DNA from: Rhodospirillaceae bacterium
GTDB lineage: Bacteria; Pseudomonadota; Alphaproteobacteria; CACIAM-22H2
Assembly: GCA_022843945.1 (NCBI GenBank)
Contig: JALHMR010000011.1
Location: forward strand, 1-64,000
Length of the DNA: 64,000 nucleotides
Direction of reading: 5' to 3'
The notes under the pieces: model-generated
What the model was told of the DNA's origin: nothing
Databases searched by the model: none
Seen by the model: the letters and a program-made list of their open reading frames with translations, nothing else
Made by a program: the position numbers and the translations under genes
Shown: positions 1,551 through 29,473 of the stretch, piece by piece
How positions within the stretch are numbered: the stretch's first letter is position 1
Layout of the letters: the number at the start of each line of letters is the position of its first letter

Positions 1551-1571
1551 CGCGGTTTTCAGCAGCTTCAG

Positions 1572-1608
1572 CCGCCGGCGTCAGTGATGGCGCCGGCGGT
1601 TCTGTTTT
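1572..1608 (+). terminator. Rho-independent terminator
   Basis: CCGCCGGCG at 1572-1580 pairs perfectly with CGCCGGCGG at 1591-1599 (9-bp stem, 10-nt loop) and is followed by TTCTGTTTT. It lies 21 bp after the binding-protein stop and should end that monocistronic transcript. Confidence 0.85.
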
Positions 1609-1647
1609 AAGCACATGACGTCATAAGTAACCCTCTCCCCTTGCGGG

Positions 1648-1671
1648 GGGAGTTATCACCTTGACTGCACA
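1648..1671. repeat. Left terminal inverted repeat of the IS
   Basis: Begins GGGAGTTATCACC and pairs with 3672-3695 with two mismatches over 24 bp. The preceding 8 bases (1640-1647) are the left copy of the target duplication. Confidence 0.9.
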
Positions 1672-1820
1672 TGACACAAGCCTTAAATCTGGCAAGACAG
1701 GCCGGCTACGCAAACCCGATAGCTTTGATTTGACTCCGAGTATCACACTCGGAACCGCTCCGTACGTTTTTGTGCTGCCCGACGGCTCGGTTCTAAGGGG
1801 AGGCAAAAGGGGCCCATCCA

Positions 1821-2492
1821 ATGGCAAGAGAAATAAGGTTCGCCGTAGGAACCCGAGATGATTTGCGCTCATCGGTGTGGAGGCTTTGGGGCAACAAGAA
1901 CGATTTGTTCTTAGCCGCCAGATCTTCGGTGGGCGTATCCAAGATTAGCTTTCATGCCTCCGGCATTTGCCGCCATGCGGTGGTATCGCAAACACCAAGA
2001 GCGCCGCTTGATCGATGGACGAGGGTCGCCAGAACGCGAGAGGGAATAACGCCAGTTATCGACCTAATTGTCCCGGCCTTTCAGGTGGAGAAAGGTTTTC
2101 GCGATAAGGCGCCGCCGATCAATAAGCAGATGGAGCTAATAGACATCCCCGAGGATGGAACGAAGCGGATTATCCGTATCTTTTTAACGGACCCAAACTT
2201 TGCAGAGGCAGATGTACTCAATATCCCGCGTACTGCCCCAATATCGTTTCATGGCCGCGTCGATTTATTGCGAGAGACGGCTTGGATCGTGTCTTACCGC
2301 GACCAGCTTAAACCTGAGGAGTGGCGATTTCTCGACGGATTGGTGAAAACAACAAAGATCAATCTAAAGCCGGGCAGCTCGCCTGACGGCATGCGTGCCT
2401 CGATGCATATTTTCGAGCAGACCACGCCGCGTATGATAATCGATGTCCAACTCGGACCGGGGAACATTCATGTCGAAGAAACCGCAAGATAG
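1821..2492 (+). CDS. IS passenger gene, unknown function
   Basis: A 223-aa soluble protein without a signal peptide or membrane segment. It starts MAREIRFAVGTRDD with an AGGGG motif about 8 nt upstream. I recognise no domain. The middle part (ITPVIDLIVPAFQVEKGF, then a segment with RIFLTDPNFAEADV) looks like an alternating alpha/beta fold. It lies wholly inside the IS ends and is therefore carried by the element; codon use and GC are milder than in the host genes around it. It overlaps the downstream small ORF by 23 bp, so the two are probably translated together. Confidence 0.7.
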   Translation: MAREIRFAVGTRDDLRSSVWRLWGNKNDLFLAARSSVGVSKISFHASGICRHAVVSQTPRAPLDRWTRVARTREGITPVIDLIVPAFQVEKGFRDKAPPINKQMELIDIPEDGTKRIIRIFLTDPNFAEADVLNIPRTAPISFHGRVDLLRETAWIVSYRDQLKPEEWRFLDGLVKTTKINLKPGSSPDGMRASMHIFEQTTPRMIIDVQLGPGNIHVEETAR

Positions 2493-2670
2493 GCCGATCC
2501 AGGACACCATTTTCTATGATGAGCAAGAAACGGCGCGGCGCCGCGACGAGGTGATTCGCCGGATGGCAGCCACCCCGCCTCAGCCGCGCGTGCCTAAGTC
2601 TTCTCGTCGTCCCAGAAAGGCAAAGAAAGCTGGCGCGGCACGGAAGGGCCGCGCCCCGGGAAAACCCTAG
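2470..2670 (+). CDS. IS passenger gene, small basic protein
   Basis: A 66-aa protein starting MSKKPQDRPIQDTIFYDEQE, with a very basic, Ala/Lys/Arg-rich C-terminus (SRRPRKAKKAGAARKGRAP). The start at 2470 has GGGGAA 6-8 nt upstream; an in-frame upstream ATG at 2443 has none. The basic tail suggests nucleic-acid contact, but no family is recognised. It overlaps the end of the previous passenger gene and sits between it and the convergent transposase gene inside the IS. Confidence 0.6.
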   Translation: MSKKPQDRPIQDTIFYDEQETARRRDEVIRRMAATPPQPRVPKSSRRPRKAKKAGAARKGRAPGKP

Positions 2671-2694
2671 TCGGCCACTTTGGCGCCGGCGCTG

Positions 2695-3630
2695 TCAGTG
2701 CCTTGAATACGTCACCCGCTTGCCGACGACGCCAGCAACCGCCCGAGTAGCCCGCGAAGCGTCCGCAACCCCAAGAGCCTGCCGTTCGTTGTAACGAAAA
2801 TCGAATTCCGCAAGGTACCGCTTTAGATGCTGCTGCGAGACATGGTGATACGTCCCGGCGATGCCGCGCTTCAGGATGCTGAAGTAGCCCTCAATCGTGT
2901 TCGTGTGCGCTTCGCCCCGGACGTATTCGCCGATGCTATGGTTGACAACTTCATGGCTGGCGAACATCGGACCGACGAGGCGGTACTGGCCCTCGCCATC
3001 CGTCATAAGAGCGGTCGCCTTGTGAAGCTGTTCCACAAGAATTGGCTTCAGCGTCTTGGCGGTCACTTCGGGAATGTGCTGCGACCGGACCTTGCCGCCG
3101 CGCTCAACGAGCGAAAAGACAATCTCTTTGCCTTGCCCGCCGATGTTGCCCTTCGTGCGCTTGCGGCGATGCTTGTTCTTTTCCTTCCCGCCCACATACG
3201 TCTCATCGGCCTCAACCGTCTTACCTTCCCCGCCCAGCGGGCCAGCCGGATTGAGGACGCGCATGCCCTCGCGGATGCGATGCGCCATGAACCACGCCGT
3301 CTTGTACGGCAGGCCAAGCATGCGATGAAGCTGATGGGCGCTGATGCCTTTCTTGCTGGCGCACATAAGGTGCGTTGCCAGAAGCCACTTGGTCAGCGGG
3401 ATATGCGACCGCTCGTAAATCGTCCCTACAGCCGCCGTGAACTTCTTCCGGCAGTCCTTGCAGTGGTACCAGCCCGGACCCATCGACTTGCCACCCAGCA
3501 CCGCTATGCGGTCAAAGCCGCCACAGAACGGGCAATAGGCACCCTTGGGCCAGCGGATGGCTTCGAAGTGGCTACGGGCCGCCTCAAGGTCCGTAAAGAT
3601 CGGGTTGGTCAGGTCTACGGTCGCGGTCAT
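2695..3630 (-). CDS. IS1595-family (ISXO2-like) transposase
   Basis: A 311-aa transposase that should cut and integrate the surrounding element. It has an N-terminal zinc ribbon (CPFCGG ... CKDCRKKFT), the catalytic-domain opening VEADETYVGG with the first Asp, a second Asp in ALMTDGEGQY, and the late motif NTIEGYFSILKRG typical of the IS1595 family. The start at 3630 is chosen because AAGGAG lies 6 nt upstream; the longer frame to 3663 adds only an atypical leader. The gene is full length and undamaged. Confidence 0.93.
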   Translation of the reverse strand: MTATVDLTNPIFTDLEAARSHFEAIRWPKGAYCPFCGGFDRIAVLGGKSMGPGWYHCKDCRKKFTAAVGTIYERSHIPLTKWLLATHLMCASKKGISAHQLHRMLGLPYKTAWFMAHRIREGMRVLNPAGPLGGEGKTVEADETYVGGKEKNKHRRKRTKGNIGGQGKEIVFSLVERGGKVRSQHIPEVTAKTLKPILVEQLHKATALMTDGEGQYRLVGPMFASHEVVNHSIGEYVRGEAHTNTIEGYFSILKRGIAGTYHHVSQQHLKRYLAEFDFRYNERQALGVADASRATRAVAGVVGKRVTYSRH

Positions 3631-3671
3631 GTCTAACTCCTTCAATGGCAGCGAATATGCCAAATCCAGAG

Positions 3672-3695
3672 TGTTCAGTCAAGGTGATAATTCCC
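3672..3695. repeat. Right terminal inverted repeat of the IS
   Basis: Reads TGTTCAGTCAAGG and ends AATTCCC; its reverse complement matches 1648-1671 except at two positions. The following 8 bases (3696-3703, CTTGCGGG) are the right copy of the target duplication. Confidence 0.9.
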
Positions 3696-3741
3696 CTTGC
3701 GGGAGAGGGTGCGAGCGAAGCGAGCGGGTGAGGGGTAGCGC
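3696..3741. repeat. Dispersed palindromic repeat, split by the IS
   Basis: CTTGCGGGAGAGGGT followed by GCGAGCGAAGCGAGC and GGTGAGGGG is one side of a palindromic repeat; its other side (CCCTCTCCC, 1631-1639) lies beyond the left end of the IS. Related C/G-rich palindromes occur at 17272-17365. Confidence 0.6.
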
Positions 3742-3783
3742 GCGGTAACATACATTCCAAGTCTGACGAGCGAGGGGGGCGCA

Positions 3784-4971
3784 ATGCCTGGCTGGGTTCG
3801 CCGGTTAAGCAAATGGCTGGCCGAAATGAGCATTAAAGGCATCGCCGCTTGGGTTTTTGGAGCGGCTGTCACAGCCGCCGGCCTTTCCGATGCTCTTTGG
3901 GACTGGTGGTATGACCCGCCGGCCTTCGTTTTGAGTGGTTTGTTTCGGCCCGTGCTCTCGCTGACTGGCCTACTGTTGATATGCGCCGGTTTTCTATGGA
4001 CGAAAACCAACTCATCAAGAAAGCCTTCATCGCCACGCAAACCGGTCGGGGGATCAACCAGGCCAGTCGAAACCAAGGAGATTGACGTTGCTCAATACGC
4101 CGAAGCGCTCGTTGCACATAAGCGGGAGGAATGGTCGATCGGTCAGAGCGAAGCGATTGCGCTGGGCTACGAAAGCCCCGTGCTTGAACTTCCACCCAAC
4201 ATCAGGGACGGGCCTCGGATGCAAACCTATATCGAATCCCTGCAGCGGTTGCCGCAAATGCAGGGTGTCAACTGCGAAGAGATATATGCGCGTTGGCATC
4301 GCGATTTGCCTAAGCGCTTCCGCAACGACCCGAACGTAATGATCGACGTACCTTTGGATTCATTGTCAGAATCGGTGAAAGCATATCCGTGCGACTTCGC
4401 GATCATCTGTGGCCTCGAAAGGGAATTGGGTTGGCGCCCCCTGGGTGTCACAGGAGATGTACTTGCCGTGACCGCTGACGGACAAACAATTCTGCTGCTC
4501 AACCGAGGCAAAAAGATTTCGAGAGACGCGCCTGATCATTTGCATGTTTTTGGTGGAGCGACTGATCCCTTCTATGACTTGGGATCGCTTGCACACTGCG
4601 CCGAGCGGGAATTCAGAGAAGAGTCCGGAAGGCAGTGCAGCGTTGCGAACTGCCCCGTTCTTTTGCATCGAGAGGACTCTTATAAAATGTCAATGATCAC
4701 GTACCTCGGGGTCTCTGTGCAGAATAGCGACTCATACGAAACAGAAGAGGGTGTGGTGTATGCGCTTAATCTTATGAACTGGGACGCGGTCGTGAACTGC
4801 TTTCTAAACAAAGAGTGGGTCGACAGTGGGCGGCAAGCGTTTTTGGTCTGGCTTGGTCTCGGGTGCCCGGTTCAAGGCCAAGTTTCACCTTCAATTGCAC
4901 CCGAATATGCGCGGCTCTTGTACGAGAAGAGCCTGAATATCTGTCGTAGCAAGGGACTGGTGAGAGTCTGA
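3784..4971 (+). CDS. Membrane-anchored Nudix-like protein
   Basis: A 395-aa protein with two predicted N-terminal membrane segments (about residues 18-40, AAWVFGAAVTAAGL, and 46-68, VLSLTGLLLICAGF), a basic/Ser-Pro linker (SSRKPSSPRKP), and a cytoplasmic region with a Nudix-like box at about 257-283. The metal-binding half REFREESG (275-282) is intact. The first half is irregular: the expected Glu before it is replaced by Gly, with a GG pair displaced upstream. This suggests a diverged pyrophosphohydrolase or a nucleotide-binding derivative. Base composition is lower in GC than the flanks, and it sits directly beside an IS, so horizontal origin is likely. Substrate unknown. Confidence 0.75.
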   Translation: MPGWVRRLSKWLAEMSIKGIAAWVFGAAVTAAGLSDALWDWWYDPPAFVLSGLFRPVLSLTGLLLICAGFLWTKTNSSRKPSSPRKPVGGSTRPVETKEIDVAQYAEALVAHKREEWSIGQSEAIALGYESPVLELPPNIRDGPRMQTYIESLQRLPQMQGVNCEEIYARWHRDLPKRFRNDPNVMIDVPLDSLSESVKAYPCDFAIICGLERELGWRPLGVTGDVLAVTADGQTILLLNRGKKISRDAPDHLHVFGGATDPFYDLGSLAHCAEREFREESGRQCSVANCPVLLHREDSYKMSMITYLGVSVQNSDSYETEEGVVYALNLMNWDAVVNCFLNKEWVDSGRQAFLVWLGLGCPVQGQVSPSIAPEYARLLYEKSLNICRSKGLVRV

Positions 4972-5078
4972 ATAGGGATGCCGTTTCGGGATGCCGCCTG
5001 TGATGAATGACGTTTGAGCGAGGTTGAGCGCTGCACCCAGGGCCGCAGAGGCATCAATCAATGATCTTGCAATGCCTG

Positions 5079-5798
5079 TCAGCCGGGGCGCTTGCCGGCG
5101 CTGGCTTCGTCGGCGCGCAGCAGGGTCATCTCGACATGAACGAGATGGGACAGCATGGCGGCATGCGCGCCGGATGCGTCGCGCCGCTCCAGGCAGGCGT
5201 AGATCGTGCGATGATCGTCGATGGTCATGCTCTGCTGATGCGTGAGTTGTGTGCGCTCGCTGAGCACGGCGAAGATCGGGCCGAACATGCCCTTCCACAG
5301 CCCTTCGACGATCTCGATGACCACGGTGTTGCGGGTGGCCCGCGCGATGCGCTCGTGAAACTGGCGGTCGGCGTCGAGCTTCTCCCAATGCGTGCCGTTG
5401 CGCCGGCGCTCGGAGAGCTCGATGGCCTCGAGCACGCCAGCGAGATCCCCGTTGGTGACGGTCTGGCAGGCCAGGGCGGCGACCGGCGGCTCCACCAGGC
5501 GACGCGCGCCGATCAGCTCGAACGGGCCGGGGCCCGTATCGGTGCCGCCCTCGGCGCCCTCGACCAGCCGCGGCCTGATAAAGGCGCCCGATCCCGTGCG
5601 CACCTCGATCAGGCCGGCGATCTCGAGCGCGATCAGGGCCTCGCGCACCGTCGGCCGGCTGATACCCAGCTGCTTGGCGAGGTCGCGCTCCGCCGGAAGC
5701 CGGCCACCCGCGGCGTATTCGCCCGAGCGGATCAGCTCGGCGATCTGGTCGGCCGCCTGCTGATAGAGCCGCTGGGTATTGATGGCCTGGATCGGCAT
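5079..5798 (-). CDS. GntR-family (FCD) transcriptional regulator
   Basis: A 239-aa regulator with an N-terminal winged helix (LYQQAADQIAELIRSGEY, then LPAERDLAKQLGISRPTVRE) and an all-helical FCD ligand domain (DRQFHERIARATRN and a late DDHRTIYACLERRD). The start MPIQAINTQRL at 5798 is used; the reading frame continues upstream but overlaps the preceding gene. Its ATG is 4 nt after the Ldh2-type gene's stop, so the two form an operon. Candidate operators upstream of the divergent tctC (6951-6994) and of the orphan binding protein (525-539) make it the likely local regulator of carboxylate uptake. Confidence 0.93.
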   Translation of the reverse strand: MPIQAINTQRLYQQAADQIAELIRSGEYAAGGRLPAERDLAKQLGISRPTVREALIALEIAGLIEVRTGSGAFIRPRLVEGAEGGTDTGPGPFELIGARRLVEPPVAALACQTVTNGDLAGVLEAIELSERRRNGTHWEKLDADRQFHERIARATRNTVVIEIVEGLWKGMFGPIFAVLSERTQLTHQQSMTIDDHRTIYACLERRDASGAHAAMLSHLVHVEMTLLRADEASAGKRPG

Positions 5799-16710: not shown

Positions 16711-17268
16711 CTACGGGCTCGCCGGCTCCTTGCGCAGGAAGGCCTCGGGCAGGTCTGGCCCCACATCGGGCTCGGTATCGCTGCGCCAGTGGACGACTTC
16801 CCAGCGCTCGCCGTCCGCGGCGGCGCGGCGCAGGTAGACCTGCACATCGTCCCAGGTCTCGTCGCAGATCGCCTGCGTGGCCGGGCAGGCCCGGTGGAGC
16901 ATTTCCACCAGCGCGTAGCCGGGCCTGTACCAGTCGAGATCGCGCATATCCTCGGTAACGTCTTCCGGCCGGATCAGGCTTTCGCGCTCGATGACGTACT
17001 CGACCTGCATCGGCTCGCCGCTGCGCGGCGGCGTGGCGGCGGCGACCGCGCGGCAGAGCGCCGGATCGGCGCGCGTCAGGCAGGCGACCAGGGTCTCGGC
17101 GCCGCAGCTGGGGCTGCGCGGCGTGCCCAGGCAGCGGCTGGTGGCGTCCGTCGGCGTGATGCGGCCGGGTGTTTCCTTGCTGGTCTGCGCTAAGGACTGC
17201 GCGGCGAAAAAGAGAATGAGAAGAATGGTCGCGCCGAGCGCGGCACGCTTGCGCAGATGACCCCCCAC
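16711..17268 (-). CDS. Small secreted Cys-containing protein
   Basis: The frame is open to an ATG at 17388, but the first 40 codons come from a G/C-rich dispersed repeat and read like its usual translation (PSPIKGEG, PSPLEGEG). A GTG at 17268 with GGGAGGGAAGG just before it gives a 185-aa protein whose N-terminus is a normal signal peptide (LRKRAALGATILLILFFAAQ, cleavage after SLAQ). The mature part has Cys residues in CLGTPRSPSCG, CLTRADPALC and CPATQAIC, suggesting disulphides. No family is recognised. The repeat has probably extended the reading frame without being part of the original protein. Confidence 0.65.
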   Translation of the reverse strand: MGGHLRKRAALGATILLILFFAAQSLAQTSKETPGRITPTDATSRCLGTPRSPSCGAETLVACLTRADPALCRAVAAATPPRSGEPMQVEYVIERESLIRPEDVTEDMRDLDWYRPGYALVEMLHRACPATQAICDETWDDVQVYLRRAAADGERWEVVHWRSDTEPDVGPDLPEAFLRKEPASP

Positions 17269-17271
17269 CCT

Positions 17272-17365
17272 TCCCTCCCCCTCAAGGGGGGAGGGTAAGA
17301 CAAGGAGAGCGCCTCTCCTTCCAGCCCCCTCCCCCTTGATGGGGGAGGGTTGGGGTGGGGGTGAT
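17272..17365. repeat. C/G-rich palindromic repeat, two units
   Basis: Two related units: CCTCCCCCTCAAGGGGGGAGG and CCTCCCCCTTGATGGGGGAGG-type palindromes, about 40 bp apart, between the TPR gene and the secreted-protein gene. They belong to the same broad class as the repeat interrupted by the IS at 1648-3695. Confidence 0.65.
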
Positions 17366-17384
17366 CCGACGGCCCGAATGCTGG

Positions 17385-18773
17385 TCACGCGAACCCCCGC
17401 TCGGTCGCCAGATCGGACAGGGCCGTCTTGGCGTCGCGGAACACGGAGTCCCAGTCACCGGGCTTGGGCTGGCGGAACAGGCGCATCGAGGGATACCAGG
17501 GCGTATCGTCGCGCTCGCGCAGGTACAGCCAGTAGGGCACATAGGCCAGCAGGTTCCAGATCGGCCGGCCGCGCGAGCCGGCAAGATGCGCGACCGACGA
17601 ATCGGTCATGATCACCAGGTCGAGCTCGTCGAGCGCGGCAGTCGTGTCGGCGAAATCGCCGAGATGCGGGGCCAGGTCGACGATGAAGGAGCGGGCGCGC
17701 AGCTGGTCGAGATCGGGCGCGCGCGGACCCTTCTGCAGGCTGAAGAGCTGGACGCCCGGCACCTCGGCGAAGCTGAGGAAGCGGTCGAGCGAGGCCGAGC
17801 GCGTGTGGTTGCTCTTGAAGGTGATGCTGCCCGACCAGACGATGCCGACCTTGAGCTTGTCGCCGTAGGGAGCGAAGACCGGGGCGAGGCGCGCCCGGCG
17901 CTCCTCCTCGACCAAAAATTCGGTGGGCGGCGGGATGGTCTCGAGATCGGTGTTGAACAGGCCCGGCAGGCTGAGCAGCGGGCAGTGGACGTCAAACTCC
18001 GGCAGTTTCTCGCCCACCGCCATGGCCTTGTCGACGCCGGGGATGGTTTCGAACAGCTTCTTGAGCTCGGGACGGCAGCCGAGAATCACCTGCCCGACGC
18101 GCTCCTTGACCAAGGGCGCGTAGCGCGCGCCGAGGATGGTGTCGCCGAAGCCCTGTTCCGGCCAGAGCAGGATCGTCGCCTCGGGCATGTCGGCGCCGGT
18201 CCAGCGCGGCTGGCGATAGGCGGGCGGCTTGAGCTCCGGCAGCTTCCAGCGCCATTCGAACTCCGCCCAGCCTTCGGCGAAGTCACCGAGCATGAGGTGG
18301 ATCTGGGCGCGGTCGGTATGCGCCGTGACGTGATCCGGCGCCAGGTTGAGGACATGCTGGAAGGCGGCCAGCGCATCCTTGAGATCGCCGCGCTCACGCA
18401 AGGCCACGCCGAGATTCTGCCAGGTCGTGGGGTTGCGGGCGTCGACCTGCACGGCCCGGTAATGCGCGGCGACCGCTTCGTCGAGACGGCCGAGATCCTT
18501 GAGCGCGTTGCCGAGATTGGACAGCACGCCGCCGGCCTCCGGCGACAGGGCGAGCGCCCGGCGATAGGCGGGCACGGCGGCCGCGGGATGCCCCGTGGCC
18601 CGTAGGGAGACTCCGAGCATCGTCCAGGCCCGGGCGTCGTCTGGCCGGGCGGCGACCAGGGCCTCGGCGAGCGGCGGGGTGCCGGCGACGTTGCCCGAGG
18701 CGAGCCGTTTCTCGAGCTGCGCGCGCAGCATCTCGGGCGTGGGGGGTGTTTGGGCGAGGGCTGTCGCGGACAT
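17385..18773 (-). CDS. TPR protein with glycosyltransferase-9/OGT-like C-terminal domain
   Basis: A 462-aa protein. The N-terminal half is built of tetratricopeptide repeats (AWTMLGVSLRATGHPAAAVP, LSNLGNALKDLGRLDEAVAA, TWQNLGVALRERGDLKDALA). The C-terminal half resembles the glycosyltransferase-like domain seen in bacterial TPR proteins: LLWPEQGFGDTILGARY, KVGIVWSGSITFKSNHTRS, LDELDLVIMTDSSVAHLAGS. It may glycosylate cell-surface or flagellar targets. The ATG at 18773 is used; a TTG seven codons upstream is unlikely. Confidence 0.85.
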   Translation of the reverse strand: MSATALAQTPPTPEMLRAQLEKRLASGNVAGTPPLAEALVAARPDDARAWTMLGVSLRATGHPAAAVPAYRRALALSPEAGGVLSNLGNALKDLGRLDEAVAAHYRAVQVDARNPTTWQNLGVALRERGDLKDALAAFQHVLNLAPDHVTAHTDRAQIHLMLGDFAEGWAEFEWRWKLPELKPPAYRQPRWTGADMPEATILLWPEQGFGDTILGARYAPLVKERVGQVILGCRPELKKLFETIPGVDKAMAVGEKLPEFDVHCPLLSLPGLFNTDLETIPPPTEFLVEEERRARLAPVFAPYGDKLKVGIVWSGSITFKSNHTRSASLDRFLSFAEVPGVQLFSLQKGPRAPDLDQLRARSFIVDLAPHLGDFADTTAALDELDLVIMTDSSVAHLAGSRGRPIWNLLAYVPYWLYLRERDDTPWYPSMRLFRQPKPGDWDSVFRDAKTALSDLATERGFA

Positions 18774-19041
18774 CGAGGGGCTACCGGGCGGCAACGTAAG
18801 GTGGCGAGCCTATCCTACCCCGCGATTTGCCGGATTTTTAGTTAAAACCGGAGGACGCCACCGGGCTGGCCGATGCGGCTGGAACCTGCGCCGTTCATGC
18901 GGCGGTCCGGGTTCCGCGCACCGTCAGCGCGTCGAAGGCCTATTGATTCTGGTGTTCCGAGAAAATTTGGCGAGCATCGGGTAGGCAGGCGAAGGAAAGG
19001 AAGGGATTCAAATCAATAGAGCCGGCGTCGTATGATGATGC

Positions 19042-19923
19042 ATGTTGCGAACTGTGCGGCCCAACGAAGCTCTGACACCAGACGAGCAAAAGGAAGCTCT
19101 AGCTCTCATCAGGGGTGGACTGGGGAAGGCTGAGCTCGAAACAATCGGCTCAATGGTAACTCCCATTTTTTGGGTGATGCGTGACGGCCGCGGCAACGAA
19201 AAGGTGAAAAACGGCTCTTTGTTTTTCTTGGATGCGGGTGAAGGCGCGTTTGGTGTCACGGCGGCTCATGTCGTAACCGAGTGTCTGAGGGACAGCCAAT
19301 CTCCAGAGTTTGTCCAATGCATGATCGGCAGGGATGGGGAGGTCGCCTATCCCATCGTTATTCGTGACCGCATTATTGCAGTACATGAAGCACTGGATAT
19401 TGCGACACTGCGTTTCAATGCCGATGAGGTGCAGCATATAGGCCGGACCGTGTTGACGGGATTTCAGAAGGCATGGCCGCCTCAATTGGCGCAAGTGGGC
19501 AGTTTTGTCACGTATTCCGGCTGGCCGGGAAAGGGAAGGCAGTGGCTTTCGCGCCGTGACATAAAGTTCGGGCTTGTGGCAATGGCAGGCCAGATCGCGA
19601 ATGCACACGAAACTTGTATTTCAATACAGATAGAACGCGAAAAACTAGAGCAAGCCCTTGGTGATCAGGAAATGCCAGAAAATTATGACTTCGGCGGCAT
19701 GAGCGGTGGACCGATGCTCGCTATCGTCCAAGGGGTAGTCCTCAGAGGATGGAAGCTGGCTGGCGTCATCTTCCAAGGGCCGAATGCTAGCGGTGATCCC
19801 AACGAGTCTATTTTGGGCCTCGAAATCATCCAGGCCAGGCCTGCGCACTTCATTAAAGCAAACGGAACGCTCGATACTGATCGGTGGGGGCATAGTGGGC
19901 CGCCGGCCGCTGCGGATGGCTAG
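19042..19923 (+). CDS. Trypsin-like serine protease domain protein
   Basis: A 293-aa protein with a chymotrypsin-like protease pattern: H76 in GVTAAHVV, D119 in EALDIATLRF and S221 in FGGMSGGPML, so the full catalytic triad can be placed. There is no signal peptide, so it probably acts in the cytoplasm, unlike DegP-type proteases; no PDZ domain follows. The N-terminal 40 residues are a short extension. Lower GC than the flanking genes and its neighbour, a DUF2971 protein, suggest an accessory module. Target unknown. Confidence 0.8.
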   Translation: MLRTVRPNEALTPDEQKEALALIRGGLGKAELETIGSMVTPIFWVMRDGRGNEKVKNGSLFFLDAGEGAFGVTAAHVVTECLRDSQSPEFVQCMIGRDGEVAYPIVIRDRIIAVHEALDIATLRFNADEVQHIGRTVLTGFQKAWPPQLAQVGSFVTYSGWPGKGRQWLSRRDIKFGLVAMAGQIANAHETCISIQIEREKLEQALGDQEMPENYDFGGMSGGPMLAIVQGVVLRGWKLAGVIFQGPNASGDPNESILGLEIIQARPAHFIKANGTLDTDRWGHSGPPAAADG

Positions 19924-20060
19924 CTGTCCTGAGGACGTTGACTCATCGAGGTGGAGTGGCTGGCGCGACGAGGCCCAATATGCGTCAAAATAGAAGCACA
20001 CGGTACGCGCGTAAATCGCTGGGCGTGGCCAACCAGCGGGCGACCGGCTAGAATTGGCGG

Positions 20061-21017
20061 ATGGCGAATCCGGGTGGAATTTATCTCGATGATGAGGACC
20101 GGAAAGCCGTAAACCAGTTCTTGCTGAAACTGGTCGGCCGTATCACGAAGCAGATTCCTCCAACGCTTTGGCACTACACGACCGCCGATGGTCTGATCGG
20201 GATTCTTAAAGACAAAAAGCTACGTGCTGGCCACATCGCGGGCATGAATGACGCCTATGAGTTTCGGTACAGCGTCGGGTCATTGGCACAACAGACCAAC
20301 CATCGTCTGGTTAAAGCGCCGGGTCTTCCAGATGACATCCGGGCGATGCTTGAGCACCTCAGGGATGGGTTAAAGATTCCGCTCAGCGACATTCCACCCG
20401 TTTTCGTTTCCTGCTTTTCCTCCACGGTAGATCAGACAAACCATTGGGGTGAGTACGGTGATCGTGGCAAGGGATACGCGCTAGCCTTTCGGGCGCACGA
20501 TATCTTCCAGATCGCTGCCGAGCAGAACATTTTTGCTACCCGCTGCGTCTACGATGACGAAGAGATTGCTACGATCATGGCGGCTATTGTTCTAACTGCC
20601 GAGCAAGTGTTTGCCGTCGTTCGGGAGAAGCGACCGGACATCGAGCTATCTGTCCTGATCAAGGACTTCCTTCAGTTCTATGTTTGGAACCTCGCCTTCC
20701 TGGCGCCGATCTTTAAGAGCCGAAGCTTCGCCCAGGAAACCGAGTGGCGCTACACCCTGCGTCTACCCGACCAGAGCTATTCGAAGATGACGTTCGCGGC
20801 GAAGCGGTCTGAAATTCGCCCCTATATTGAGTTCGACTTCGTCCGAAAGACGCCGCCCACGACCGGGCACATTCCGCTGGCCGAAGTCGTCATCGGTCCC
20901 GCTCGATCGGAGATCGATATGGAGTTGGCAGTCATGGCCGTGAAGGGGTTGCTCGCTCAGCACGGCTTCAACGAGACACCGGTCGGTCCCTCACGCTCGG
21001 GCTACCGGGGCAGCTAA
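20061..21017 (+). CDS. DUF2971 family protein
   Basis: A 318-aa soluble protein with the DUF2971 pattern: LWHYTTADGLIGILKDKKLR near residue 37, GMNDAYEF near 61, VFVSCFSSTVDQTNHWGEYG near 114-133, GYALAF near 138, and a late ETEWRYTLR segment. The biochemical function of the family is not established to my knowledge; such genes are often found in variable chromosomal regions. It follows the protease gene after 137 bp on the same strand, and shares its composition, so they may have arrived together. Confidence 0.8.
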   Translation: MANPGGIYLDDEDRKAVNQFLLKLVGRITKQIPPTLWHYTTADGLIGILKDKKLRAGHIAGMNDAYEFRYSVGSLAQQTNHRLVKAPGLPDDIRAMLEHLRDGLKIPLSDIPPVFVSCFSSTVDQTNHWGEYGDRGKGYALAFRAHDIFQIAAEQNIFATRCVYDDEEIATIMAAIVLTAEQVFAVVREKRPDIELSVLIKDFLQFYVWNLAFLAPIFKSRSFAQETEWRYTLRLPDQSYSKMTFAAKRSEIRPYIEFDFVRKTPPTTGHIPLAEVVIGPARSEIDMELAVMAVKGLLAQHGFNETPVGPSRSGYRGS

Positions 21018-21118
21018 TCCGTCGCGTGCTTGGCTCTATCCAAATCGTTCACGAGGATATGTGACCCTCGTTTTCAGAAAGGCAGAGGCGGGTCGGCTTA
21101 TATAGGGGGGACTGTCCG

Positions 21119-21706
21119 ATGTATCGCACCATGCTCGTAGCGGCGGCACTTTTTTTCTCCACGGGCGCCAACGCCCAACAGGAATGGACGAGCGCTAGCA
21201 AGCCGGGTGACGGGTCCGTTTTCACGTTCCGTGGCTACAAGATGGGTGACCCGCTGCCGCCGAAACTCGCTAGCGATTGCTTAACAAGCAATGACCTGCC
21301 TGGGATGCAAAGCTGTCAGGATAGGTCGCTTCCACGCCTCAGCGGCGGAATGGTCGATCTCCAGGGCTTGCCAGTTAGGTACTTGTCCTATCAGTTCTTC
21401 GACGGTCGTTTCGCTGGTTTCCTGATCAACCTACCCGCCGACAAGTTTAGCGAGATGAGGCGGCTGCTCGTCGCTCGGTACGGCGATCCGCATGCCGAAA
21501 CGCCGTCGAGCATTCAGAATCAGGCCGGGGCCACGTTCGATCAAGTTGTCACTATCTGGAATACGCCGCACGGTGCCATGCGGCTTACGAAGCGCAGTGG
21601 GAAAGTGACTGACAGCCTACTTGCCATGTGGGCAGAGGATGCCTTCAAGGAAGCTCAGCAGCGCAAACAGAACGCCGTTCCAGACCGGGCACGCCGTGCC
21701 TTCTAG
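21119..21706 (+). CDS. Small secreted protein, unknown function
   Basis: A 195-aa protein with signal peptide MYRTMLVAAALFFSTGANAQ. The mature part contains two Cys in a spacing that could form a disulphide (SDCLTSNDLPGMQSCQD) and a mixed alpha/beta region (LSYQFFDGRFAGFLINLPAD). It is probably periplasmic. The TATAGGG-type sequence shortly upstream (about 21098) could be part of a promoter. It is the last gene of the less GC-rich patch 19.0-21.7 kb. Confidence 0.75.
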   Translation: MYRTMLVAAALFFSTGANAQQEWTSASKPGDGSVFTFRGYKMGDPLPPKLASDCLTSNDLPGMQSCQDRSLPRLSGGMVDLQGLPVRYLSYQFFDGRFAGFLINLPADKFSEMRRLLVARYGDPHAETPSSIQNQAGATFDQVVTIWNTPHGAMRLTKRSGKVTDSLLAMWAEDAFKEAQQRKQNAVPDRARRAF

Positions 21707-21727
21707 TGATTGATCCTGCTAGCGCGG

Positions 21728-23251
21728 CTACTTGCGCAAAATCGACCCCAGCACGCCGCGGATGATCTGCCGGCCGATCTCGCGGCCGATGGTGCCGGCG
21801 ATGTTGCGGGTCACGGATTTCACCACGGCATCGGTCAGGGTCTGGCCGCCGCGCGCGGTCTTGGCGCGGGCCGGCGGCTTCGTTCCCGTGGTCTTCTCGC
21901 TACCGCCGAAGATGGTGCCCAGCGTGTCGACCAGGCCGCCACTTTCGCCGGGTTTGCCGTCGCCGGCGGCGAGCTGCTCGTAGGCGGAGTCGCGGTCGAT
22001 GGCGGTGTCGTACTTGCCGGCGATCGGGCTCGCCGCCATCAGCTTCTGCCGCGCCTCGGGCGTCAGCGTGCCCAGGCGCGAGCGCGGCGGGGCGATCAGC
22101 GCGCGCTCCACGGGGGCGGGCACGCCGCTTTCATCGAGCAGCGAGACCAGGGCCTCGCCGACGCCGAGCTCGGTGATCGCCTTGGCGGTGTCGAGGCCGG
22201 GCCGGGCGCGGAAGGTCTCGGCCGCCGCGCGCACCGCCTTCTGGTCGCGCGGGCTGAAGGCGCGCAGCGCGTGCTGCACGCGGTTGCCGAGCTGGCCGAG
22301 GATGCGGTCGGGGATGTCGATCGGGTTCTGGGTGACGAAGTAGATGCCCACCCCCTTGGAGCGGATCAGGCGCACGACCTGCTCGACCTTGTCGACCAGG
22401 GCGTCGGGCGCGTCGGTGAAGAGCAGGTGCGCCTCGTCGAAGAAGAAGACGAGCTTGGGCCGCTCGAGGTCGCCGACCTCGGGCAGGTTCTCGTAGAGTT
22501 CGGCCAGCAGCCAGAGGAGGAAAGTGGCGTAGAGCCGCGGCTTGAGCATCAGCCGGTCGGCGGCCAGCACCGAGACGAGGCCGCGGCCCCGGCCGTCCCG
22601 GCGCATCAGGTCGGCGATCTCCAGCATCGGCTCGCCGAAGAACCTGTCGCCGCCCTGGATCTCGAGGGCGAGGGCCGCGCGCTGGATGGCGCCGAGTGTG
22701 GCGGGCGCTAGGTTGCCGTACTGCGCGCCGAGCTCGCCGGCGTTCTCGCTCATATGCTGGAGCAGCGCCTTCAAGTCCTTGAGGTCGATGAGCAGCAGCT
22801 GGCGGTCGTCGGCGATCTTGAAACAGAGCTGCAGCACCTGGGCCTGGATCTCGTTGAGCTCCAGCAGGCGGGCGAGCAGCAGCGGCCCGAGATCGGAGAC
22901 CGTGGCGCGCACGGGATGGCCCTGCTCGCCGAACAGGTCGAAGAGCAGGGTGGGCAGGCCTTCGGCGAGTAGCGAGACGGCGAGCAGCTTGGCGCGCTCG
23001 ACCACCTTGGCGTCGGTGGCCCCGGGTTCGGCGATGCTGGCCAGGTCGCCCTTCACGTCGGCGAGGAAGACGGGCACGCCGGCACTGGCGAAGCCCTCGG
23101 CCAGCAGGCGCAGGGTGACCGACTTGCCGGTTCCCGTGGCGCCGGCGATCAGGCCGTGGCGGTTGGCCACGGAGAGCGGCAGTTCGAGGCTGCTACGCTT
23201 GCTGCCGCGCGCAGCCTTCGAGGATTTGGCGATCAGAAGTCGTTCACTCAT
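21728..23251 (-). CDS. HerA-like ATPase (DUF853 family)
   Basis: A 507-aa P-loop ATPase of the HerA/FtsK superfamily, YjgR/DUF853 branch. Walker A is GATGTGKS at about 37-44 and Walker [13 protein letters not shown] in the middle; [19 protein letters not shown] and [20 protein letters not shown] follow. The C-terminal tail ([15 protein letters not shown]) is short and basic. Its role in the cell is not established; DNA translocation is inferred from the superfamily. The ATG at 23251 is used (the longer frame runs into the gcrA terminator). That terminator lies only 10 bp upstream, so transcription must read through it or begin very close to the start. Confidence 0.92.
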
Positions 23252-23260
23252 GGTCTTCGC

Positions 23261-23294
23261 AAAAAAGAAACCGCGCCCGGCCAAGCCGGGCGCG
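23261..23294 (-). terminator. Rho-independent terminator of gcrA
   Basis: On the minus strand CGCGCCCGGC, 3-nt TTG loop, GCCGGGCGCG: a perfect 10-bp stem (23272-23294), followed by GTTTCTTTTTT. It is a textbook terminator 24 bp after the gcrA stop. Confidence 0.9.
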
Positions 23295-25022: not shown

Positions 25023-25225
25023 GCAGCCATCGACACGGCGGTCGGGCGTTCGGGCCAAATGGCTGCGGTAACCCCTTGATCAGCCTTGATTCTGGATGTG
25101 CGTTTTCTCACATCCGGCCGTGACAGAAATCATTCTACTTTAACGGGCGTGCGGTAAGATGATCCGGGAGGCCAGAACGGTCGACTCGCGCTACGGGCGC
25201 GGCGCTGGGCAGGGGGGCAGAAGGC

Positions 25226-28200
25226 ATGGCGATCAAAAAGAACCCGTTCGGGGTGACGTCGGGCGACGACGTTGCAACCGGAACGGGCGGCGATGATGTG
25301 ATCCGCGCCGGTGCCGGCGACGACATCATCCACGGGGGTGACGGCAACGATCAACTTTTTGGCGACGAGGGCAACGACGCGCTTTATGGCGGCGTCGGCG
25401 ACGACCGCCTGACCGGGGGTATAGGCGACGACACCTTGGATGGCGGCGACGGCAACGACACCCTGTCCGCCGGTGATGGCAACGACCAGCTCGACGGAGG
25501 CGAGGGGAACGACCGCCTCCTCGGCGGCGCGGGTGACGACCTGCTGCGCGGCGGTGCCGGTGATGACACCCTGGACGGCGGCGATGGTGACGACGTCCTG
25601 GACGGGGGTGACGGCAACGACACCATCCATGCGGGCGCAGGCCGTGACATCGTGCATGGCGGCGCAGGGAACGACCGAATCTATGGCGGCGCCGACGAGG
25701 ATGAGCTCCACGGCGGTGAGGGCAACGATGTAATCAGCACGGGGACCGGTGGTGGGGTCGCCTTTGGTGACGCCGGAAATGACACGATCTCCGGCAACAC
25801 CGGCAACGACACGCTGCTGGGCGGCGAGGGTGACGACACGATCAGCGCCGGCGCCGGCAACGACTATATCGACGGCGGCGCCGGCAACGACCGGCTCAGC
25901 GGCGGCGCGGACGAAGACGAGATCCACGGCGGTGACGGCAATGACGTGATCAGCGCCGGCGCCGGCGGCGGCATGGCCTTCGGCGACGCTGGCAACGACA
26001 CCATCAGCGGCGGCGCCGGCAACGACGTCCTGCTGGGCGGCGAGGGCGACGACACGATCAACGCCGGTGCAGGTCTCAACTATGTCGAGGGCGGCGACGG
26101 AAACGATCGGCTGACCGGCGGCGCCGAGGCCGACGAGATCCATGGCGGAGCCGGGCACGACGTGATCAGCACCGGCGCTGGCGGCGGGACGGCTTATGGC
26201 GACGCCGGTAACGACACGATCACCGGTGGCACGGGCGATGATCTTCTGCTCGGCGGCGAGGGTGACGACACGATCAACGCCGGTGCCGGCGTTGACTTCG
26301 TCGATGGCGGCGCGGGCAACGACCGCATCAACGGCGGCGCCGATGCCGATGAGCTGCATGGCGGCGAGGGCGACGATGTGATCGTCGCCGGAGCGGGGGG
26401 CGGCAGCGCGCTGGGCGGAGCGGGCAACGACACGCTCACCGGTGGTGCGGGTAGTGACGAGCTCGACGGCGGGGCGGGCAGCGACACGCTCAACGCCGGG
26501 GCCGGCGACGACGTGGTGGTCTTTACGGCGAGCGAGAATCTCGGCGAGCGCGACGTCTATCGCGGCGGCAAGGGTGCCGACCGCCTGGAAGTCGTGGTCG
26601 AGGATACGATTGCCGAGACGGCCGAGTTCCAGAGCGAATGGGCCGCCTTCGAGACCTTTCTGGCTCAGAAAGGCAACGTCACACGCGACGCCAATGCGCC
26701 CACCTTCCATTTCGAGACCATCGGTCTCGACGCCGCGGGATTCGAGTCGGCGAACCTCACGGTGATCGAGACCAACGTCGATCCGACCGCCCTGGCCGAT
26801 GAAGCCGGCGCTAGCGAGGACGACGGCGAGCTGACCGGCAGCGTGCTCGACAATGACGAGGACGGCGATGGCGACGCGCTGGAGGTGACCAATGCCGGCG
26901 AGTACCAGGGCGCCTACGGCATCCTGACGCTCAACAGCGACGGCAGCTACAGCTACGCGATCGACCCCGAGTTGACGCAGCACCTGGGGACGGGCGAGAG
27001 CGTCAGCGAGAGCTTTGACTATCAGATCGCGGACGGCGAGGGTGGCTCCGCCGCCTCAACTCTGACCATCCGCATCGACGGCAGCAATGACGGTCCGGTC
27101 GCCGTCGCCGACGACGCCGAGATCGACGAGGACGCGGCGTCGATCACCATCGACGTGCTGGCCAATGACAGCGACGTCGATGCCAACGATACGCGCGAGC
27201 TGGTCGCGGTCAGCGTCTCCGAGGCGGGGGCCACCGTCAGCATCGTCGACGGTCAGGCCGTCTACGAGCCGGGCTCGCTGTTCAATTATCTCGCCGATGG
27301 CGAGACGGCCACCGATACCTTCACCTACACGGTGCGCGACGCCTCGGGCGCCGAGAGCACCGAAACCGTCACCGTCACAATCACCGGCAGCGACGACGGC
27401 GCGCCGATTATCGGCGTCGCGGTCGACGGCTACATCAGCGGCGGTACCGTCTTCGCCGACACCAACGAGAACGGCGTACTCGATGCCGGCGAAGCCAGCG
27501 ACATCACCGACGCCAATGGCGGCTTCACGCTGACCGGCGGCAGCGGACCGCTGGCGCTCACCGGCGGCACCGACACTGGCACCGGCCTCGCCGTGCTGGG
27601 CACCATGCGTGCTCCCGACGGGGCGACGGTGATCTCACCGCTGACCACGATCCTGGCCGCGATGGTCGATGCCGGCGCCACGCTGGTGCAGGCGCAGGGT
27701 GCGCTGAGTGACGCGCTTGGCCTGGACGCGATCGATTTCATCACCTTCGATCCGCTGGCGGCGACATTGTCGAGCGATCCTGCGACCGCCGAGGACGGTC
27801 GGGATGCGCTGGCGGCCCTGACCATGATCCAGAGCACGCTGATCCAGGCGAGCGCCCTACTCTCCGGCGCGGGCGGCCTCGACGCGGCCACCGGTATCGA
27901 TGCCGTGGTCCAGGAGCTGGCCGGCCAGTTCGTGGCCGGCTCGCCGGTCGACCTCACGGATGCAAGCGTCATTGAAACCGTGATCAGCGGCGCGGCGGAC
28001 GTGCTTGGCCTGGGGGCGGCCGTCGCCGACACGGCCGCTGGTGCCGCCGGGATCGTCGCCGCGCTCAACAGCGCCGCCGAGGACGCCGTCAACTCCGGCG
28101 GCAGCGCCTCGTCGATCGTCGAGGCGCTGGAGCAGGTGGTCTACGTGGCGCAGCACGACGCTGCCCCGGCCATCGAAGATGCCGGGCAGACGGGCACCGC

Positions 28201-29473
28201 TGCGGCGATCGACGACGTCACCGATGATTTCACGGGAGCTGCTTTGGAGCAGGCGCTCGAGGATGCGCCGGTCACCGGTGCCCTGGCGGGCATCGCGCTC
28301 GACGGATACATCAGCGGCGGCACGATCTTCGCCGACACGAACGAGAATGGCGTCCTCGATGCCGGGGAAGCCAGCGACACGACCGACGCCAACGGCACGT
28401 TCACGCTCAGCAACAGCAGTGGGCCGCTGGTGCTGACGGGCGGCACGGATACCGGGACCAACCTGCCGCTGTTGGGCACCTTGCGCGCGCCTCAAGGCGC
28501 CACGGTAGTTTCGCCGCTGACTACGGTCCTGGCGGCGATGATGGACCAGGGCGCGACGCTCGCCGAGGCCCTGTCCGATTTGAGTGGGTGGCTCGTCCCG
28601 GTCGACTATCTCAACTTCGACCCGATTGCCGAAACGTTGGCAAGCTCTACGGGTACGGAAGAATTCGAGATCGCGTCAAACGTTCTGTTCGCGCAGACTC
28701 TCGTCTACAACACCGTCATCCAGGCTGGTAGTTTGCTTCACGGCGTTTCGGGCGTTGATCAGGCCGCGGCAATGAACGCAGTTTTTGATCAGATTGCGGC
28801 GCAGGCAAGTGACGCAGTGACGAATTACCTCGACTTTTATTTGGGCGACGCGGTCCACGCCGAGAGCGTGATTCGCGGGGCCGCAGACCGGCTTGCGATC
28901 AGCATCTCCGACGATTTCGCATCTGGCGGAGCACAAGTCATTGCCTCGGTGAACGAGATGGCAGACTTGGCGCTGACCAACCTCGGAAATCCCGGATCGA
29001 TCGTCGCGGGCATGCAGCACTCGACTTACTACGCTCAGAACTATGCCGCGCCGGAACTTGGAGCGGCGGCCCAGATCGGAACTGGAGAGGCAATTGCCGA
29101 GGTCGTTAATCACTTCACGCAGCAGTGGGTTGAAGGCGACGAAACGGACAACACCCTGGCCGGATTCTATATGAACGACGAACTCACCGGGCTGGCAGGT
29201 GCGGATGTCCTGACGGGTGGGGAGGGCGACGACCTGTTCATCTTCGCTGCAGGAGATGGGAACGACGCCATCACGGACTTCCAGACCGGTGAGCTTTCTG
29301 ACGACAGGATCGCCATCTACGGTAGCGCAACGGTGACAGGCATGGATGAGCTGATCGCGGCTTCGACCCAGGTGGGGGTGGACACGGTGATCGATCTCGG
29401 CGGCGGTGACAGCATCACGCTACTGGGGGTCAATGTCGCTGATCTGAGCTACGACGATTTCCTTATAAACTGA
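25226..29473 (+). CDS. Large RTX/VCBS-type secreted protein
   Basis: A 1415-aa calcium-binding protein, very probably exported by the type I system encoded just downstream. After a 10-residue start, residues about 11-430 are almost wholly GGxGxDxLx nonapeptides, the calcium beta-roll motif. Between about 515 and 730 are VCBS/cadherin-like modules (GILTLNSDGSYSYAIDPE; a second ending in VTVTITGSDD). From about 730 and again from 1022 runs a roughly 290-aa repeat beginning DGYISGGTVFADTNENGVLD. A short RTX patch near 1325 (LTGGEGDDLFIF) precedes the C-terminus SYDDFLIN, a typical uncleaved type I signal. Adhesin or S-layer-like roles are possible. Placement of the main RTX block at the N-terminus is unusual. 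Confidence 0.92.
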   Translation: MAIKKNPFGVTSGDDVATGTGGDDVIRAGAGDDIIHGGDGNDQLFGDEGNDALYGGVGDDRLTGGIGDDTLDGGDGNDTLSAGDGNDQLDGGEGNDRLLGGAGDDLLRGGAGDDTLDGGDGDDVLDGGDGNDTIHAGAGRDIVHGGAGNDRIYGGADEDELHGGEGNDVISTGTGGGVAFGDAGNDTISGNTGNDTLLGGEGDDTISAGAGNDYIDGGAGNDRLSGGADEDEIHGGDGNDVISAGAGGGMAFGDAGNDTISGGAGNDVLLGGEGDDTINAGAGLNYVEGGDGNDRLTGGAEADEIHGGAGHDVISTGAGGGTAYGDAGNDTITGGTGDDLLLGGEGDDTINAGAGVDFVDGGAGNDRINGGADADELHGGEGDDVIVAGAGGGSALGGAGNDTLTGGAGSDELDGGAGSDTLNAGAGDDVVVFTASENLGERDVYRGGKGADRLEVVVEDTIAETAEFQSEWAAFETFLAQKGNVTRDANAPTFHFETIGLDAAGFESANLTVIETNVDPTALADEAGASEDDGELTGSVLDNDEDGDGDALEVTNAGEYQGAYGILTLNSDGSYSYAIDPELTQHLGTGESVSESFDYQIADGEGGSAASTLTIRIDGSNDGPVAVADDAEIDEDAASITIDVLANDSDVDANDTRELVAVSVSEAGATVSIVDGQAVYEPGSLFNYLADGETATDTFTYTVRDASGAESTETVTVTITGSDDGAPIIGVAVDGYISGGTVFADTNENGVLDAGEASDITDANGGFTLTGGSGPLALTGGTDTGTGLAVLGTMRAPDGATVISPLTTILAAMVDAGATLVQAQGALSDALGLDAIDFITFDPLAATLSSDPATAEDGRDALAALTMIQSTLIQASALLSGAGGLDAATGIDAVVQELAGQFVAGSPVDLTDASVIETVISGAADVLGLGAAVADTAAGAAGIVAALNSAAEDAVNSGGSASSIVEALEQVVYVAQHDAAPAIEDAGQTGTAAAIDDVTDDFTGAALEQALEDAPVTGALAGIALDGYISGGTIFADTNENGVLDAGEASDTTDANGTFTLSNSSGPLVLTGGTDTGTNLPLLGTLRAPQGATVVSPLTTVLAAMMDQGATLAEALSDLSGWLVPVDYLNFDPIAETLASSTGTEEFEIASNVLFAQTLVYNTVIQAGSLLHGVSGVDQAAAMNAVFDQIAAQASDAVTNYLDFYLGDAVHAESVIRGAADRLAISISDDFASGGAQVIASVNEMADLALTNLGNPGSIVAGMQHSTYYAQNYAAPELGAAAQIGTGEAIAEVVNHFTQQWVEGDETDNTLAGFYMNDELTGLAGADVLTGGEGDDLFIFAAGDGNDAITDFQTGELSDDRIAIYGSATVTGMDELIAASTQVGVDTVIDLGGGDSITLLGVNVADLSYDDFLIN
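25685..26520 (+). repeat. Four 216-bp super-repeats within the RTX block
   Basis: Units start at 25685, 25901, 26117 and 26333, exactly 216 bp (72 aa, eight nonapeptides) apart. Each opens GGADEDEL/I or a variant, followed by HGGxGxDVI, a GGG-x-A-x-G block that lacks the usual Asp, and LLGGEGDDTI. The fourth unit decays at its end. The constant period points to unequal crossing-over. Confidence 0.85.

What the first reader, a model, noticed from the sequence alone, without database searches (positions are those of the whole stretch)
19042..21017. Cytoplasmic trypsin-like protease next to a DUF2971 protein in a less GC-rich patch
The protease has a complete His76-Asp119-Ser221 triad but no signal peptide, which is unusual for a trypsin-type protease in bacteria. 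It is followed on the same strand by a DUF2971 protein of unknown activity; both differ in composition from their surroundings. Proteases paired with accessory proteins of unknown function occur in several bacterial immune systems, so a defence role is a fair hypothesis.
Basis: inference. Interest (0 to 1): 0.55.

Follow-up and report, generated by a model that had tools for sequence, protein, structure and literature searches.

The report
Unpaired protease beside ADP-ribosyltransferase-like protein
Two unrelated mobile genes sit side by side in a bacterial chromosome: a protein-cutting enzyme that usually travels alone, and a member of an uncharacterised family that looks like an ADP-ribosyltransferase and also turns up in phages and their satellites.

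Summary
The protease (19042-19923) has an H76-D119-S221 triad, conserved in 12 of 12 aligned relatives, no signal-peptide-like stretch, and an HtrA/Deg-like model without PDZ (best Z 15.7). Its family is rare (0 of 22 order-mates, 8 of 384 class genomes). In 16 homologous loci from 15 genomes no DUF2971 gene is adjacent; only 3 of the 15 genomes carry one anywhere. It is often a lone gene, or inside mobile elements. The three genes at 19.0-21.7 kb fill a 2.9-kb insertion between genes that lie together in related genomes. The better lead is DUF2971. Its confident model (pLDDT 89) matches the DNA ADP-ribosyltransferase DarT first (Z 7.4), with ADP-ribosyltransferases in nearly all of the top 20 rows. 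An H-Y...W-Y...E-x-E-x-R signature is conserved in 10 of 10 members of an alignment not filtered on it. Relatives sit in phage, satellite and plasmid cargo spots, some beside anti-phage genes. I found no paper giving the family a function. I propose an orphan ADP-ribosyltransferase conflict effector; activity is untested.

The parts
19042..19923 (+). stand-alone cytosolic trypsin/HtrA-fold serine protease, 293 aa, triad H76-D119-S221, two N-terminal helices, no PDZ or fused sensor
20061..21017 (+). DUF2971 protein, 318 aa, proposed DarT/KptA-like ADP-ribosyltransferase; conserved H38 Y39 D64 E67 W129 Y132 K219 E226 E228 R230
21119..21706 (+). third cargo gene, 195 aa, signal-peptide-like N-terminus, function unknown, absent from 40 other genomes searched
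18795..21727 (.). 2.9-kb low-GC insertion between the TPR gene and the HerA-like gene, which lie together in four genomes of a sister genus
17388..18794 (-). left flank: TPR-repeat protein, high GC
21728..23284 (-). right flank: HerA_C ATPase, followed by gcrA and corA, order conserved in relatives

Best explanation
The stretch is a small cargo island of three genes that have no shared history, placed between two conserved chromosomal genes. The protease is a stand-alone cytosolic HtrA-fold serine protease from a sparse family linked to mobile elements. It probably cuts a specific protein and is held in check by its N-terminal helices or by oligomer state (inferred). The DUF2971 protein is most likely an ADP-ribosyltransferase of the DarT/KptA-like H-Y-E type: it binds NAD+ in the cleft around H38, Y132 and E226/E228 and transfers ADP-ribose to a nucleic acid or protein during phage infection or competition between elements. 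Shown here: gene structure, insertion, triad, folds of the models, conserved signature, lack of co-occurrence, mobile contexts. Inferred: enzymatic activity, target, trigger and defence role.
For: Pair absent in 16 loci. TPR and HerA genes lie together without insert in L006, L007, L008 and L016. DUF2971 model pLDDT 89.3; Foldseek's top four PDB rows are Thermus DarT, E 0.026-0.13, prob 0.63-0.90; VIA-align ranks DarT first (7omy, Z 7.4, 143 residues, 3.6 A), then Tpt1/KptA, with ADP-ribosyltransferases in nearly all of the top 20 rows. Pfam Tox-ART-HYD1 touches 6 of 21 members, best E 0.0039. ExExR in 27 of 27 unfiltered viral-contig relatives and H-Y in 26 of 27. Relatives next to qatCD, next to an abortive-infection gene in three plasmids, and after int-AlpA in a satellite-like plasmid and three viral contigs.
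Against: Z 7.4 is under the tool's own caution level of 8, and Foldseek E-values are above 0.02. Profile-profile comparison aligns only the first motif, with low probability (DarT 1.3%, KptA 14.9%), though DarT against KptA itself also fails (0.35%). Overlay of catalytic residues could not be checked. Two DUF2971 proteins lack the histidine: L099 has Gln, L061 has Arg (left out of the alignments). The window protein's own PADLOC PDC-S31 match is weak (E 2.5e-4). Context counts have no control set. Nothing shows activity or defence.
Confidence: 0.65

Rival explanations
1. A true two-gene defence module: the protease cleaves and so activates the DUF2971 protein, as trypsin-like proteases activate gated nucleases in Hachiman and AVAST.
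For: Same strand, 137-bp gap, shared low GC. Protease members match LmuA (4 of 11, best 1.8e-8) and RT-Protease_XI (4 of 11, best 5.7e-7) in PADLOC. Protease-activated proenzymes are established in phage defence (PMC12799240; abstract and sections 4 and 9 read).
Against: No co-occurrence in 16 loci. None of the DUF2971 neighbourhoods read lists this protease. A promoter-like site lies before each gene, though no more often than chance.
Confidence: 0.07
2. DUF2971 keeps the ART fold but is not a transferase: it acts as a NADase, binds nucleotides, or serves as an inhibitor or antitoxin.
For: Motif-1 His is replaced in L099 and L061. Similarity to known ARTs is at fold level only.
Against: Polar residues conserved across distant members (H, Y, W, Y, K, E, E, R) are typical of an enzyme.
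Confidence: 0.2
3. The protease is a housekeeping quality-control enzyme (cytosolic HtrA-like) with no role in conflict.
For: HtrA/Deg is the best structural match; it is lone among metabolic genes in L063 and L049.
Against: Very sparse distribution, low GC here, and presence in prophage L054, conjugative-type L064 and recombinase-linked L056 and L048.
Confidence: 0.25
4. Recent local assembly: the three cargo genes of this genome now work as one unit, though relatives do not.
For: Same strand, contiguous, one low-GC block.
Against: No relative shows the arrangement; same-genus G022 lacks the protease, DUF2971 and third gene; G000 has two other DUF2971 genes and only one copy of this protease.
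Confidence: 0.08

Closest known systems
DarT, DNA ADP-ribosyltransferase toxin of DarTG (PF14487)
   Same: first structural match; shared N-terminal H-motif strand-helix and a late conserved glutamate; linked to phage conflict
   Different: no Pfam DarT match; no macro-domain or NADAR partner in the window; larger, with a long helical insert between motifs 2 and 3; invariant W-x-x-Y and E-x-E-x-R
Tpt1/KptA RNA 2'-phosphotransferase (PF01885)
   Same: second structural match (Z about 5 to 6.4); motif 1 aligns (LWHYT with LFHGT)
   Different: sequence similarity limited to motif 1; mobile, sparse distribution
Tox-ART-HYD1 (PF15633)
   Same: weak Pfam match over motif 1 (6 of 21 members)
   Different: no polymorphic-toxin architecture or immunity gene seen
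PADLOC PDC-S31 candidate
   Same: members of the DUF2971 set match it (PDLC04994 12 of 21, best 3.7e-8; PDLC04990 7 of 21, best 2.6e-12)
   Different: window protein matches only at 2.5e-4
Trypsin-like proteases of Hachiman, AVAST, Lamassu and DRT nuclease-protease pairs
   Same: cytosolic trypsin-like domain; weak LmuA and RT-Protease matches
   Different: not fused to a sensor; no MBL nuclease gene seen beside it
HtrA/Deg proteases
   Same: chymotrypsin-type fold, best Z 15.7
   Different: no PDZ domain, no signal-peptide-like stretch

Membership tests
Protease-nuclease defence pairs (Hachiman/AVAST/Lamassu/DRT type) | MBL-fold nuclease gene immediately upstream of the protease | tested here: not met
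   window: upstream neighbour is a TPR protein on the other strand; in relatives the Pfam-scanned neighbours show no metallo-beta-lactamase match, though not every neighbour was scanned
Protease-nuclease defence pairs (Hachiman/AVAST/Lamassu/DRT type) | protease fused to a defence enzyme (HamA, Avs, LmuA) | tested here: not met
   293-aa stand-alone protein, one domain
Trypsin-like serine peptidase (S1-type fold) | chymotrypsin fold with His-Asp-Ser triad | tested here: met
HtrA/Deg | PDZ domain after the protease domain | tested here: not met
   protein ends after the barrel; no PDZ in Pfam scan
DUF2971 (PF11185) | Pfam score above curated cut-off | tested here: met
   35.8 against 22 bits
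ADP-ribosyltransferase superfamily | ART fold | tested here: inconclusive
   DarT ranks first and ARTs fill nearly all of the top 20 rows, but best Z is 7.4 and Foldseek E 0.026
ADP-ribosyltransferase superfamily, H-Y-E clade | conserved H, Y and E in the three motifs | tested here: inconclusive
   H38, Y132 and E226/E228 conserved in order; spatial equivalence not checked; two members lack H
ADP-ribosyltransferase superfamily | transfer of ADP-ribose from NAD+ | not testable with these tools
   needs biochemistry
DarTG toxin-antitoxin | DarT Pfam match | tested here: not met
   no PF14487 match at E up to 1; no match in G000
DarTG toxin-antitoxin | adjacent macro-domain (DarG) or NADAR antitoxin | tested here: not met
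   neighbours are the protease and a 195-aa secreted-type protein without Pfam match
PADLOC PDC-S31 | match to the candidate model | tested here: inconclusive
   E 2.5e-4, 18.9 bits, no curated cut-off given

The most novel reading that the evidence does not exclude
DUF2971 is a widespread, so far unrecognised family of ADP-ribosyltransferases carried by phages, satellites, plasmids and chromosomal cargo spots, mostly as single genes without a dedicated antitoxin, that blocks competing phages by ADP-ribosylating a nucleic acid or protein.
Probability: 0.45. Interest if true: 0.7.

Novelty: new variant of a known kind. Interest (0 to 1): 0.5.

Why it matters
DUF2971 has a Pfam entry with no assigned function; in the open-access library I searched, its name occurs in one genome-annotation list and nowhere else. 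If it is an ADP-ribosyltransferase it joins DarTG and CmdTAC as NAD+-dependent anti-phage chemistry, in a single-gene form carried by phages and satellites. The candidate catalytic residues are named, so it can be tested directly. The protease result warns against reading function into one-off neighbours.

Tried and rejected
Pairing of protease and DUF2971: rejected (and gene lists). Protease in phage, plasmid or IMG/VR collections: no match. Window DUF2971 as single query in IMG/VR: nothing. Sequence search of the solved structures gave nothing useful for either family; GABA-receptor hits to the DUF2971 profile are chance-level. hhalign against DarT and KptA was too weak to decide. BFVD fold search gave only phage proteins without an assigned function, best E 0.0048. 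No direct repeat of 10 or more bases is shared by 18700-19041 and 21018-21760. Promoter and terminator scans did not exceed chance. No model coordinates were at hand, so the active-site overlay was not done.

Rows dropped before counts: L053 (divergent, 403 aa) is among the 16 protease loci but was left out of A2 and A6. L071-L073 are partial genes at contig edges: L071 is in A6, none is in the neighbourhood count. L061 (Arg in motif 1) was left out of A4. L099 failed my motif filter; L082, L084, L085, L088, L092 and L105 were also left out of A7 (near-duplicates or overlong). A7 was built after a filter asking for HY and ExExR, so its 21 of 21 conservation at those sites is partly selection; the unfiltered counts are 10 of 10 in A4 and 26 of 27 and 27 of 27. 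The IMG/VR loci were found with patterns holding W129, Y132, K219 and F223, so those sites are biased there too. Plasmid contexts: 15 records read, hand-picked for variety from 132 and 534. In one search, 14 of 27 viral loci were listed and two of these (L087, L093) showed no usable neighbours.

Full report
Observation. The window is part of a 5.38-Mb draft genome in 82 contigs. A third, secreted-type gene of 195 aa (21119-21706) lies in the same dip.

The island. In four genomes of a sister genus the HerA-like gene and the TPR gene lie together (L006, L007, L008, L016). In the window 2.9 kb separate them. In other relatives the HerA gene is followed by a homologue of the window gene at 16711-17388 instead. 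In the same-genus genome G022 different genes follow HerA. So this is a variable spot holding an insertion. The protease is missing from 22 of 22 other genomes of the order; DUF2971 is in 2 and the third gene in 0 of the 40 other genomes of the relatives set.

The protease. Relatives are rare: 3 of 397 other genomes in a phylum sample, 8 of 384 in a class sample, and 12 loci in GTDB contigs, some of them the same loci again; the closest are in Bauldia (46%), Roseovarius (42%) and Caulobacteraceae (41%). The triad is invariant in 12 aligned proteins. The model (pLDDT 79) is an HtrA/Deg-like barrel with two N-terminal helices and no PDZ. PADLOC shows weak likeness to LmuA and RT-Protease proteins, whose trypsin-like domains are described as working with a gated MBL nuclease (PMC12799240; abstract and sections 4 and 9 read). 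Here there is neither fusion nor nuclease neighbour. Contexts vary: lone between glutamine synthetase and aldolase genes (L063), beside dehydratase and SDR genes (L049), prophage with GTA-type holin (L022/L054), ArdC-bearing element (L064), AbiE pair (L062), SIR2-like plus DUF695 beside an IS3-type transposase read by eye (L023/L055), integrase plus PIN-TPR-GreABC protein (L056), serine recombinase (L048). None of 16 loci has DUF2971 next to it; of 15 genomes 3 have DUF2971, on other contigs.

DUF2971. This genome has three diverged copies; one is followed by a tyrosine-recombinase-like gene in a GC drop (L058). The family is common on plasmids (132 records by the window protein, 534 by the Agrobacterium homologue) and in viral contigs (27 loci). 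Of 15 plasmid regions read, 8 have an annotated toxin-antitoxin, restriction, Abi or qat gene within about 6 kb (L075, L076, L077, L116, L120, L121, L122, L125) and 2 more lie beside AlpA genes with an integrase nearby (L078, L117); 5 have neither (L074, L118, L119, L123, L124). There is no control, and plasmids are rich in such genes. Three enterobacterial plasmids share the order DNA-binding protein, hypothetical, DUF2971, abortive-infection protein. In viral contigs three of the twelve readable loci show int-AlpA-DUF2971 (L080, L086, L089), and L090 lies between genes I read as P2-like tail genes S and V (these gene names are from my own reading of the sequences, not a database call). [quoted passage not shown]

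Fold. The model (pLDDT 89.3, 21 sequences) finds DarT first in both PDB comparisons. Tpt1/KptA and other ARTs fill nearly all of the next rows, then chance-level folds follow. The Z of 7.4 is modest, so the fold call rests on agreement: DarT first by two programs (the second re-aligns the first one's candidates, so they are not fully independent), several separate ART families near the top, the weak Tox-ART-HYD1 match, the motif-1 register shared with DarT and KptA, and an ordered H38...Y132...E226-x-E228 pattern that fits the H-Y-E clade (the clade is defined in PMC3482391 section 32, read; DarT2 Y71 and E160 in PMC11543638 passages). Against it stand two members without the histidine and the low hhalign scores.

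Verdict. The protease is a sparse orphan, most likely mobile cargo. The DUF2971 protein is the stronger lead: probably an ADP-ribosyltransferase used in conflict between phages, plasmids and hosts. I found no statement of this in print under the searches DUF2971, DUF2971 with ADP-ribosyl, PDC-S31 and PF11185; the library lacks most subscription papers and preprints, and supplements were not searched.

Noticed in passing
21119-21706: Third cargo gene, 195 aa with signal-peptide-like start, no family match at E up to 1 and no relative in 40 genomes.
   Followed up: partly
25226-29473: 1415-aa ORF rich in GGxGxDxL (RTX-like) repeats; the antisense ORF 25130-26983 is probably an artefact of high GC (by eye).
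   Followed up: no
850-5776: Second low-GC stretch of the window (2-kb windows at or below 0.60 GC).
   Followed up: no
L058:8898-10597: Another DUF2971 of the same genome, followed by a tyrosine-recombinase-like ORF at a GC drop.
   Followed up: partly
L061:1240-1980; L099:6001-6825: DUF2971 variants with Arg or Gln in place of the motif-1 His, perhaps separate catalytic classes.
   Followed up: no
L075, L116, L125: Shared enterobacterial plasmid order: DNA-binding protein, hypothetical, DUF2971, abortive-infection protein; a candidate multi-gene system.
   Followed up: no
L062:7584-8963: 459-aa ORF without Pfam match, ending 16 bp before the Bauldia protease on the same strand.
   Followed up: partly
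L056:4836-8702: 1288-aa protein with Mrr-like, TPR and PIN-TPR-GreABC matches beside an integrase and a protease relative.
   Followed up: no
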